Assembly (NCBI RefSeq): GCF_014191375.1 | Contig: NZ_JACHWN010000010.1 | Location: 1-64,000, forward strand | Length of the DNA: 64,000 nucleotides | Origin: Mesorhizobium sp. RMAD-H1 | GTDB lineage: Bacteria; Pseudomonadota; Alphaproteobacteria; Rhizobiales; Rhizobiaceae | Direction: 5' to 3' | In this document: piece by piece, positions 5,729-57,280 of the stretch | Layout: each line of letters begins with the position of its first letter | Position numbering within the stretch: the first letter of the stretch is position 1 | The notes under the pieces: generated by a model | Seen by the model: the letters and a program-made list of their open reading frames with translations, nothing else | The model's database searches: none | What the model was told of the DNA's origin: nothing | Position numbers and translations under genes: made by a program

Positions 5729-6898
5729 TCAGCGATATTGCCGGATCCAGCCGGTGGAGAGCTCGAGTGCGGCATCAAAAGCCTTCTTGCCGATGCCGCC
5801 CTCATTGACCGCCTCGGCAGTGAAGACCGGCTTTTCCTGGACGAGATCCTCGCCCATCCAGATCTTGAGCGTCCCCACCTGCTTGCCCGCCTCGACCGGT
5901 GCGATCAGCGGCCCGTTATAGACGATGCGGGCCTTGAGCGGTGGCCGGTCGCGCTTGGGCAAGAGCAGCTCCACCGCCTCCCCTGTCCGCAGCTTGGCCG
6001 CCGAATGTTCTCCTCCGTAGACGCTTGCCTCCCCCACGACATCATTTTCGGGAAACAGCAACACATCCTCGAAATTGTCCATGCCCCACTCGATGAGCTT
6101 GCGGGCCTCCTCGGCGCGCTCCTTGTCGCTGGCAAGGCCGCTCAGGCCCAGAAACAGCCTGCGCCCATTGCGCTCGGCCGAGGCGACGAGCGCAAACCCC
6201 GATTCCTGCGTGTAGCCGGTGCCGAGCCCGTCCGCCCCGATGTCGAGCCGCAAAAGCGGATTGCGGTTGCGCTGGAAGATATTGTTCCAGGTGAAGCTCT
6301 CCTGCGCGTAATATCTGTAGAACTGCGGGTAGGTCCGGTGAATGTGCCGGGCGAGGCTGACCAGCTCCGTTATCGATACCTTCTGGCCCGGCGCCGGCAA
6401 TCCGGTGGAATTGACGAAAGTGGATTTCTCGAGGCCCAGCGCGCGTGCGCGTTCGTTCATGCGCCGGGCGAATTGCTCCTCGCTGCCGGCCATGCCTTCT
6501 GCCAGCACGATGCAGCCGTCATTCGCCGACTGGACGATGACGCCCTGTACGAGATCCTCCACCCGCGGCGTCGACTTGATCTTGGCGAACATGGTGGACG
6601 TGCCGGATGGCGCGCCGCCGGTGCGCCAGGCATATTCGCTGACGGGAAACGTCCGGTCGAGCGACAACTCCCCTTTCGTCAGCGCATCGAACACCACTTC
6701 CATCGTCATCAGCTTGGCCAGCGAGGCAGGCGGGATGAGTTCATCGGCATTCTTGGCGAAAAGGACGGTACCGGTGGCGTCGTCGATCAGCAGCGCTTGC
6801 CGGGCCCTGGTTTCGACAGGCTGGGCCAGACAGACGGATGCGGCGATAACGCCCATCAGCCCACAAAGCACGCTTGCTGTATATCTGATCGACGGCAT
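5729..6898 (-). CDS. dacA: D-alanyl-D-alanine carboxypeptidase (class C/DacA-type PBP)
   Basis: A periplasmic low-molecular-weight penicillin-binding protein that trims terminal D-Ala from peptidoglycan pentapeptides. A signal peptide spans about residues 1-25 (cleavage near CLA-QPVE). The S11 peptidase domain carries the nucleophile motif SLAK (Ser59-Lys62) and SAN (Ser124-Asn126), and a C-terminal PBP5-like beta domain follows. The third catalytic box, normally KTG, reads GTG (Gly226-Gly228, in DGLGTGYTQESG): the codon at 6221-6223 clearly encodes Gly. The fold and family are certain, but activity with this substitution is an open question. Length 389 is normal. It lies downstream of rlpA in the same direction, separated by 181 bases. 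Confidence 0.92.
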   Translation of the reverse strand: MPSIRYTASVLCGLMGVIAASVCLAQPVETRARQALLIDDATGTVLFAKNADELIPPASLAKLMTMEVVFDALTKGELSLDRTFPVSEYAWRTGGAPSGTSTMFAKIKSTPRVEDLVQGVIVQSANDGCIVLAEGMAGSEEQFARRMNERARALGLEKSTFVNSTGLPAPGQKVSITELVSLARHIHRTYPQFYRYYAQESFTWNNIFQRNRNPLLRLDIGADGLGTGYTQESGFALVASAERNGRRLFLGLSGLASDKERAEEARKLIEWGMDNFEDVLLFPENDVVGEASVYGGEHSAAKLRTGEAVELLLPKRDRPPLKARIVYNGPLIAPVEAGKQVGTLKIWMGEDLVQEKPVFTAEAVNEGGIGKKAFDAALELSTGWIRQYR

Positions 6899-56586: not shown

Positions 56587-56688
56587 GCTGTGCTCCTGAT
56601 TCCCTGCGGTGCGGATGACGTCAGCCTACCTCAACTCGGTCGGATCAAAAACGCCCAAGAATCGCGGGTGGGAAGCATGGCGATTTTG

Positions 56689-56730
56689 TGCAATGCAACA
56701 GAAAATAAAATCGATTAATGACGCATTGCA
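56689..56730. promoter_or_regulatory. inverted repeat TGCAATGC/GCATTGCA upstream of the DUF1127 gene
   Basis: TGCAATGC (56689-56696) and its complement GCATTGCA (56723-56730) flank 26 AT-rich bases, about 120 bases ahead of the DUF1127 start codon and 103 bases from the divergent DUF2157 start. It could be a regulator site. In Brucella, DUF1127 genes are activated by the LysR-type protein VtlR; linking this repeat to such a regulator is speculation. Confidence 0.45.
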
Positions 56731-56849
56731 GCAATTGCAGGCCAGCTATGCAATCTTGGGCCTGCAACCCCGGGAAAACCTGGATTATATCATGGCCAAC
56801 GATCGAGACAGCGATCACCGAGACAAGCACCGAATAGAGGTTGACTGAG

Positions 56850-56996
56850 ATGAACCTGATCCGCTCCTACAACAACTGGCGCCGTTACCGCGAGACCGTC
56901 GGCGAGCTGAACCGCCTTTCGAACCGCGAGCTGAGCGACCTCGGCATTTCCCGCGCCGACATTCCTTACGTCGCTCGCCAGTCCGGCGCCCGCTAA
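56850..56996 (+). CDS. DUF1127 small protein
   Basis: A 48-codon gene beginning MNLIRSYNNWRRYRETVGEL and ending VARQSGAR. It has the YjiS/DUF1127 pattern: a basic N-terminal helix with YNNWRRYRET, the NRLSNRELSDLGISRADI core and the IPYVAR tail. The ATG at 56850 has AGAGG nine bases upstream. In Rhodobacter a DUF1127 protein (CcaF1) is encoded directly upstream of the CcsR anti-SD RNAs and binds RNA. The same layout here, with a six-hairpin CCTCCTCCC array starting 29 bases after the stop, points to the same kind of unit. Brucella DUF1127 proteins are linked to fucose uptake. Confidence 0.93.
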   Translation: MNLIRSYNNWRRYRETVGELNRLSNRELSDLGISRADIPYVARQSGAR

Positions 56997-57024
56997 GGAA
57001 CCAAAGGACGCGCTGCGTCTTAAC

Positions 57025-57147
57025 GAATGTCGCAAGAGCTTATCCTCCTCCCGAGCTCATGCGATCGAAGGTCGGCCCTCCTCCTCCCGGCCGACCTTAC
57101 CTAAAGGCGCTCGCTGTCCTCCTCCCCAGCGAGTGCCGCAGTTTCAG
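57025..57147 (+). repeat. hairpin array unit 1 (three hairpins)
   Basis: Begins GAATGTCGCAAG and contains hairpins 1-3, with linkers GCGATC and TTACCTAA conserved against unit 2. The offset to the matching motifs of unit 2 is 123, 124 and 126 bases. It ends in GCAGTTTCAG instead of a T-tract. Confidence 0.85.
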
Positions 57148-57271
57148 GAATGTCGCAAGGGCCTCTCCTCCTCCCGAGGCTTGAGCGATCAAAGGCTGAC
57201 ACTCCTCCTCCCGGTCAGCCTTTACCTAACGACACCCGCCGCTCCTCCTCCCGCGGCGGGTGTTGTTTTTT
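57148..57271 (+). repeat. hairpin array unit 2 (three hairpins)
   Basis: A diverged tandem copy of unit 1: the same GAATGTCGCAAG start, the same GCGATC and TTTACCTAA linkers, and three CCTCCTCCC loops, but different stem sequences with compensating changes. Its last hairpin doubles as the transcript terminator. Confidence 0.85.
57232..57271 (+). terminator. intrinsic terminator ending the hairpin array
   Basis: An 11-bp perfect stem ACACCCGCCGC/GCGGCGGGTGT, whose loop is the sixth CCTCCTCCC copy, is followed by TGTTTTTT. It ends ten bases before the stop of the convergent hypothetical gene. Confidence 0.9.
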
Positions 57272-57280
57272 GAGCTCCGC

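What the first reader, a model, noticed from the sequence alone, without database searches (positions are those of the whole stretch)
57025..57271. Six-hairpin anti-Shine-Dalgarno array downstream of a DUF1127 gene
Seen: six consecutive hairpins each display CCTCCTCCC in the loop, with stems that differ in sequence but keep pairing, 29 bases after a 48-codon DUF1127 gene and ended by a terminator. Known: CcsR1-4 of Rhodobacter and the cuckoo RNA family carry the same loop motif next to DUF1127 genes and accumulate under stress. Inference: the array makes several sRNAs or one long RNA with six sites that can pair with Shine-Dalgarno sequences or sequester an SD-binding protein. A six-site, single-locus version may be undescribed.
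Basis: partly seen in the sequence, partly recalled or inferred. Interest (0 to 1): 0.9.

Follow-up and report, generated by a model that had tools for sequence, protein, structure and literature searches.

The report
Tandem αr14 sRNAs after DUF1127 gene
The six-hairpin array is two side-by-side copies of an already known family of small regulatory RNAs that carry a mimic of the ribosome's mRNA-binding sequence, set behind a small-protein gene; it is real and well conserved, but of a known kind.

Summary
Six CCTCCTCCC motifs lie in the loops of six stable hairpins at 57029-57267, 28 nt after a 48-codon DUF1127 gene; the last hairpin is followed by a run of T. Rfam resolves the array into two head-to-tail copies of the known sRNA family αr14 (RF02344): 57025-57142 (79.3 bits) and 57148-57268 (104.9 bits), gathering score 58.8. 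αr14 is the NfeR1 family, close to the "cuckoo" RNAs. Four of six genus genomes, the window's own included, keep six hairpins at this place (one with a variant motif); a fifth has three. Of 80 named DUF1127 loci, 78 carry αr14, 13 have two to four units, 8 have six to nine exact motifs. Rhodobacter CcsR1-4 is already a multi-unit array behind a DUF1127 gene. Six sites in one locus is therefore not a new kind. What I add: U-tracts follow 0 of 18 internal but 10 of 14 last units, and a LsrB/VtlR-type box lies upstream in 49 of 81 regions, in 43 exactly 33 nt before YTATAT. Most likely: a LsrB-class-regulated DUF1127 mRNA whose 3' part yields two redundant Shine-Dalgarno-blocking sRNAs.

The parts
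56739..56751 (+). LsrB/VtlR-type operator, A-N3-CA-N3-ATGC (reverse complement of GCAT-N3-TG-N3-T)
   Evidence: Only match in 56587-57150 on either strand; its fixed letters are invariant in the 5 genomes of the upstream alignment; present in 49 of 81 DUF1127 upstream regions against 60 of 1600 random 300-nt windows. Consensus from PMC8844928 (passage).
56762..56790 (+). putative promoter: CTGCAA (56762-56767), 17 nt, TTATAT (56785-56790)
   Evidence: 8 of 12 matches to CTTGAC-N17-CTATAT; CTGCAA and the last five letters of the -10 are invariant in 5 genomes; YTATAT stands 33 nt after the box in 43 of 49 regions that have the box. No E. coli-type sigma-70 site found.
56850..56996 (+). DUF1127 small protein gene (48 codons)
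   Evidence: PF06568, E 4.7e-16; 94-100% identical in the three other six-hairpin genomes, 90% in L074
57025..57142 (+). αr14 unit 1, three hairpins (57029-57065, 57068-57098, 57106-57137), no U-tract after it
   Evidence: RF02344, 79.3 bits; fold; tail
57138..57151 (+). linker between the units, with GTTTCAGGAAT (57141-57151); possible processing point (inferred)
   Evidence: The same word precedes the single unit of L074, but the linkers of G001, G004 and G005 do not keep it; no promoter-like site here
57148..57268 (+). αr14 unit 2, three hairpins (57152-57189, 57191-57223, 57228-57267)
   Evidence: RF02344, 104.9 bits; fold
57228..57271 (+). hairpin 6 plus U-tract: aSD hairpin that doubles as the intrinsic terminator
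   Evidence: 15 pairs unchanged in 4 genomes; U-tract 57266-57271

Best explanation
The array is the 3' part of a DUF1127 mRNA and holds two tandem αr14 (NfeR1/cuckoo-type) sRNA units. One promoter in front of DUF1127, with a LsrB/VtlR-type operator, makes one transcript (inferred from the lack of a promoter or terminator between the parts). The transcript is probably cut, as the ccaF1-CcsR transcript is by RNase E, into the DUF1127 mRNA and one or two three-hairpin sRNAs (inferred from relatives). Each hairpin offers CCUCCUCCC in its loop; it pairs with Shine-Dalgarno regions of mRNAs, most likely for transporters and metabolic enzymes, and lowers their translation, as shown for S. meliloti NfeR1, whose three motifs are redundant. 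Doubling the unit would raise the dose of sRNA per transcript. Shown here: anatomy, family, conservation, pairing, synteny, operator-like box. Inferred: transcription, cutting, regulator, targets, dose.
For: Two full-length RF02344 hits. Fold z -8.46. Covariation over 4 six-hairpin orthologues: 98.2% of 277 cells paired and 6 of 70 pairs changed on both sides, each reached by 0 of 500 shuffles; slid controls give at most 40.6% and 2 pairs. Synteny tig / DUF2157 / DUF1127-array / trmFO. U-tract after 0 of 18 internal units against 10 of 14 last units. Only one promoter-like site and one operator-like box between 56587 and 57150, both before DUF1127. αr14 in 78 of 80 DUF1127 loci, downstream on the same strand in 72. 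Function of the loop motif, LsrB activation of NfeR1 and processing of CcsR: PMC10746234, PMC7143759, PMC8844928, PMC10253847, PMC8625941 (passages). VtlR activation of three DUF1127 genes: PMC12595884 (passages).
Against: No RNA data for this organism, and I did not check that the genome encodes LsrB. The four arrays are close kin, 54 of 70 pairs never vary, one pair of helix 1 is broken in 3 of 4, and the measure 'further pair types' is no better than shuffles (229 of 500). Unit 1 scores lower and has a longer tree branch (0.16), so it may be under weaker constraint; one motif of unit 1 is altered in G001. In S. meliloti only one of six NfeR1-type copies was reliably seen on Northern blots (PMC7143759 passage). 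The operator form has only 7 fixed letters; 32 of 81 regions lack it in that orientation, and among 43 trmFO-linked loci 20 have it. The -35 match is weak. Four of 14 last units lack a U-tract (L099, L107, L114, L118). Loci were fetched by their DUF1127 gene, so the 78 of 80 does not measure how often αr14 occurs without DUF1127.
Confidence: 0.78

Rival explanations
1. The array works as one uncut RNA with six sites, a multivalent sponge that holds ribosomes or an SD-binding protein rather than single target mRNAs.
For: No U-tract between units and only 5 nt between the two family matches; arrays of up to 9 exact motifs or 4 units exist.
Against: Each of the window's units keeps its own 5' element and hairpin order, shared with single units elsewhere; one unit is the commonest state (65 of the 78 loci with αr14); processed forms are reported for CcsR and SmelA075 (PMC8625941 passages, PMC3927594 section 2.7).
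Confidence: 0.1
2. The hairpins serve mainly in cis: they end transcription and protect the DUF1127 mRNA, and the loop motif regulates DUF1127 itself.
For: αr14 lies downstream of DUF1127 on the same strand in 72 of 80 loci fetched by DUF1127; hairpin 6 looks like a terminator.
Against: A terminator needs no identical loop word in six hairpins; in this genome an αr14 copy at C3:94888-95006 was matched where no DUF1127 gene was; NfeR1 acts in trans (PMC10746234 passages).
Confidence: 0.07
3. It is a CcsR-type operon in regulation too, driven by RpoH sigma factors.
For: Same layout as ccaF1-CcsR1-4, which has an RpoHI/RpoHII promoter (PMC10253847, figure legend).
Against: The conserved upstream block matches a LsrB/VtlR box plus a sigma-70-like -10; no RpoH model was run, so this is not excluded.
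Confidence: 0.1

Closest known systems
αr14 sRNA family (Rfam RF02344), founder S. meliloti NfeR1/Smr14C2
   Same: Three hairpins, CCUCCUCCC in every loop, variable stems; both units pass the gathering score.
   Different: Two units head to tail, 5 nt apart by the family matches; no promoter-like site of their own found; they follow a DUF1127 gene. NfeR1 has its own sigma-70 promoter with LsrB and NtrC sites (PMC10746234 passages).
cuckoo RNA family / CIN1 locus (Reinkensmeier and Giegerich 2015; not held; seen only as cited in PMC4504443 and PMC10253847)
   Same: Hairpin modules with a conserved loop and free stems; association with short DUF1127 proteins.
   Different: The cuckoo motif is described as 2-4 hairpins; here 6 as 3+3. 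Whether that paper lists this arrangement I could not check.
ccaF1-CcsR1-4 operon of Rhodobacter sphaeroides
   Same: DUF1127 gene followed by several related sRNAs in one transcript with a terminator at the end (PMC10253847, figure legend).
   Different: Four sRNAs instead of two, RpoHI/RpoHII promoter, CcaF1 of 71 aa instead of 48. That such an sRNA has two aSD hairpins rests on what PMC3927594 says of RS0680a; that RS0680a and CcsR are the same locus is my recollection.
AbcR sRNAs (αr15)
   Same: aSD motifs, LsrB control of AbcR1, tandem pair in S. meliloti (PMC8844928, PMC7143759 passages).
   Different: Different family (RF02345); no match in this window at the gathering score.

Membership tests
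αr14 (RF02344) | covariance-model score above the gathering score | tested here: met
   79.3 and 104.9 bits against 58.8, full model 1-123
αr14 (RF02344) | three hairpins, each with CCUCCUCCC unpaired | tested here: met
   both units
αr14 (RF02344) | variable but paired stems | tested here: met
NfeR1 orthologue (in regulation) | own sigma-70 promoter (CTTAGAC-N17-CTATAT) directly before the sRNA | tested here: not met
   best match in 56791-57150 is 8 of 13 for CTTAGAC-N16-18-CTATAT and 7 of 12 for the CTTGAC form
cuckoo / CIN1 | 2-4 hairpins with a common loop motif | tested here: met
   3 per unit; definition from a PMC4504443 passage
cuckoo / CIN1 | short DUF1127 gene next to it | tested here: met
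CcsR operon | RpoHI/RpoHII promoter | tested here: inconclusive
   LsrB-type box and sigma-70-like -10 seen instead; RpoH model not run
CcsR operon | RNase E and DUF1127-protein dependent maturation | not testable with these tools
   needs RNA from mutants
any aSD sRNA | represses mRNAs by pairing at the Shine-Dalgarno region | not tested
   no target prediction run here; shown for NfeR1 (PMC10746234 passages)

The most novel reading that the evidence does not exclude
The tig-trmFO interval of Hyphomicrobiales is a site where αr14 units multiply again and again into terminator-free, polycistronic sRNA arrays (2, 3 or 4 units; up to 9 exact loops) behind one DUF1127 gene, so that unit number sets the dose or the valency of a general Shine-Dalgarno blocker, in the window's group under a LsrB-class operator.
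Probability: 0.35. Interest if true: 0.5.

Novelty: new member of a known kind. Interest (0 to 1): 0.3.

Why it matters
It gives a natural series (1 to 4 units, many at the same place in the genome) for asking why cells repeat the same Shine-Dalgarno-blocking loop. It also ties a DUF1127 gene, its 3' sRNAs and a LsrB/VtlR-type operator into one likely operon. If the units are cut from the DUF1127 mRNA, phenotypes ascribed to DUF1127 genes in other species may partly belong to the RNA behind them; that is an inference, not tested here.

Tried and rejected
Rejected: chance clustering of the word; a novel RNA family; promoters directly in front of the units; separate terminators per unit. The E. 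coli-type promoter scan found nothing, and its only terminator-like hit (minus strand, 57007-57019) is within the shuffle expectation of 0.8.

Limits. Alignment A1 sets the window's loop motif in hairpin 3 one column off; the stem columns agree, so I kept it. Before counting I left out the three long-range pairs of the centroid fold that join the 5' end to the U-tract. In the arm-swap control over 7 arrays (43 hairpins) cognate pairs average -20.6 and non-cognate -9.5 kcal/mol, but some non-cognate pairs reach -28.1 where stems of different units are copies (L117). The U-tract count takes αr14 units above the gathering score: in L114 two exact motifs lie beyond its 'last' unit, and L107 and L118 have motifs outside their two units, so sub-threshold units exist. 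The unit tree rests on 123 columns; 11 of 33 inner branches are well supported. The copy from C3 of the own genome falls among the unit 2 rows, and L106/L111 group by position, not by array. So only 'grew more than once' is claimed, and gene conversion could mimic that.

Print. Eight library searches were made. In what was listed (10 of 26: 15 of 46, others whole or nearly so) I saw no title or abstract that describes a tandem αr14. One search found 0 papers, but its term ar14 cannot match the Greek-letter spelling. The papers most likely to describe it are not held, so I make no claim that the tandem form is unpublished.

Full report
What was claimed.

The six motifs start at 57044, 57080, 57118, 57167, 57204 and 57244 and are the only ones in the window on either strand. 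The RNA of 57020-57272 folds at -117.3 kcal/mol against -74.9 for shuffles (z -8.46, 0 of 200 as good), with all six motifs in loops. The word is not enriched in the genome: 38 + 42 copies against 48 + 59 for the reversed word. It is its packing here that is extreme (about 3e-20 by a Poisson estimate for a given 209-nt stretch). Each left arm of the window's array pairs best with its own right arm in 6 of 6 cases.

What it is. Rfam finds two full-length copies of αr14 (RF02344), 57025-57142 (79.3 bits) and 57148-57268 (104.9 bits), gathering score 58.8. So the six hairpins are 3 + 3. In the window's units hairpin 1 has an outer stem, UCGC with GCGA, around an inner variable stem. Only hairpin 6 is followed by a U-tract. 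The DUF1127 gene is PF06568. The genome has six αr14 matches, five above the cut-off, at four separate places, and six DUF1127 genes.

Conservation. Six genomes of the genus, the own one included, were searched and all have αr14; three besides the window have a closely spaced tandem pair. These three (G001, G004, G005) keep the whole block gatB - tig - GDYXXLXY - DUF2157 - DUF1127 - array - 184-aa ORF - trmFO - phytoene synthase. G001 has five exact motifs and one variant, and its gap between DUF1127 and the array is 153 nt instead of 28. B. endophytica (L074) keeps tig, GDYXXLXY, DUF2157, DUF1127 and trmFO in order with a single unit; the 184-aa ORF gave no hit, phytoene synthase lies further off, and gatB was not within the fetched stretch. 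G003 was not checked at this place. On the alignment of the four six-hairpin arrays 98.2% of 277 cells pair and 6 of 70 pairs show changes on both sides (shuffles 2.4 on average, 0 of 500 as high; slid structures 0 to 2). Against: the four are close kin, 54 of the 70 pairs never vary, one pair of helix 1 is broken in 3 of 4, and the number of further pair types is no better than in shuffles (229 of 500).

How wide. In a sample of 151 genomes of the family, 146 have αr14 at E <= 0.001 and 137 above the cut-off. Thirteen of 80 have two or more units: four in L094 (Aurantimonas), three in L099 and L117, two in ten others. Eight of 80 have six to nine exact motifs within 700 nt of the stop codon. 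The window's six is thus a middle value.

One transcript, several units. After internal units there is a U-tract in 0 of 18; after last units in 10 of 14 (13 loci plus the window; the four without are L099, L107, L114, L118). The best promoter-like site between 56791 and 57150 scores 7 of 12 for CTTGAC-N16-18-CTATAT and 8 of 13 for the CTTAGAC form of NfeR1. This fits one transcript through DUF1127 and both units. The linker word GTTTCAGGAAT before unit 2 also stands before the lone unit of B. endophytica, though the linkers of G001, G004 and G005 differ. In the unit tree the four unit 1 copies of the genus form a clade (99/100) nested among unit 2 copies and the B. endophytica unit, which suggests that unit 2 is the older. 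The four units of L094 also form their own clade (99/92), so arrays probably grew at least twice. Mesorhizobium rows are mixed: M. soli units group together with weak support (90/69), while L106 and L111 units group by position (100/99 and 100/98), which points to an older duplication there. Short sequences and gene conversion limit all of this.

Regulation. The alignment upstream of DUF1127 in five genomes shows a conserved block. It contains A-N3-CA-N3-ATGC at 56739-56751, the reverse complement of the LsrB consensus GCAT-N3-TG-N3-T (PMC8844928, passage), and the VtlR motif quoted in PMC12595884 fits the same form. It is found in 49 of 81 upstream regions in that orientation, against 60 of 1600 random 300-nt windows of the same loci and 0-1 of 81 for five control words; the other orientation is found in 15 of 81 against 53 of 1600. 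In 44 of the 49 a YTATAT follows 28-38 nt after the box, in 43 of them exactly 33 nt after it, against 3 of 1600 random places. Among 43 trmFO-linked loci 20 have the box, so the Mesorhizobium and Aurantimonas arrays largely lack this exact form. VtlR activates three DUF1127 genes in Brucella (PMC12595884 passages) and LsrB activates NfeR1 (PMC10746234 passages). I infer LsrB-class control of this operon. The regions are related by descent, so 49 is not 49 independent events, and the lsrB gene itself was not looked for.

How it most likely works. By NfeR1 (PMC10746234, PMC7143759, PMC8844928; passages): the loops pair with Shine-Dalgarno regions, repress translation, and are redundant. By CcsR (PMC10253847, PMC8625941; passages): sRNAs are cut by RNase E, helped by the DUF1127 protein, from the 3' part of its own mRNA. 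For the window both steps are inference. How DUF1127 proteins act is disputed: PMC12501420 (passages) reports action through the sensor kinase PhoR in Agrobacterium and cites a lack of evidence for RNA binding by Salmonella YjiS.

Comparison with the known. It is a member of αr14 by score, hairpin number and loop. It resembles CcsR1-4 in layout. sRNAs with three and four aSD hairpins, and a two-hairpin form, were proposed as one family with a varying number of modules in 2011 (PMC3927594, section 2.7 read). The 2015 cuckoo paper, the 2012 αr14 paper, the 2021 CcaF1 paper, the 2015 CcsR paper and the 2020 Agrobacterium DUF1127 paper are not held. So I cannot say whether this tandem form is already in print, and I rate it a new member of a known kind.

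Verdict. Real, conserved, explained by a known family; interest 0.3. The part worth keeping is the growth of terminator-free αr14 arrays behind DUF1127 at one syntenic site, and the fixed spacing of a LsrB/VtlR-type box to the likely promoter.

Noticed in passing
L156:5883-6573 (own genome C1:452882-453572, minus strand); also L162, L163, L164: A second locus has an AbcR-type sRNA (αr15, RF02345), then a DUF1127 gene, then a single αr14, all on one strand; seen in four genomes of the genus, with a LsrB-type box before DUF1127 in the own genome.
   Followed up: partly
L158:5056-5168 (own genome C1:217055-217167): A weak αr14-like match (54.9 bits, below the cut-off) starts 22 nt after the stop codon of a phasin gene (PF09361, E 1.1e-14; distance).
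   Followed up: partly
L157:5495-5612 (+) and 5889-6007 (-): Two αr14 copies face each other (convergent) 276 nt apart; opposed pairs also occur in L159 (about 2 kb apart) and L160.
   Followed up: no
L104, L126, L127, L129, L131, L132, L138-L142, L145-L147, L149, L151: A glycine riboswitch lies on the opposite strand about 310-575 nt upstream of the DUF1127 gene in 16 loci of the Falsochrobactrum/Ochrobactrum/Brucella group and unnamed Rhizobiales.
   Followed up: no
L097: A record titled Bacillus subtilis strain SK6B4 carries the same DUF1127-αr14 locus with the same αr14 score (75.1) as Pseudochrobactrum; probably a mislabelled or contaminated assembly.
   Followed up: no
L089, L106, L111, L117, L143, L148, L152: In these Mesorhizobium-like, trmFO-linked loci the search with the window's proteins finds two DUF1127 genes.
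   Followed up: no
L153:7011-7163: In G001 the gap between DUF1127 and the array is 153 nt instead of 28, with the array otherwise in place; the origin of the extra stretch was not studied.
   Followed up: no
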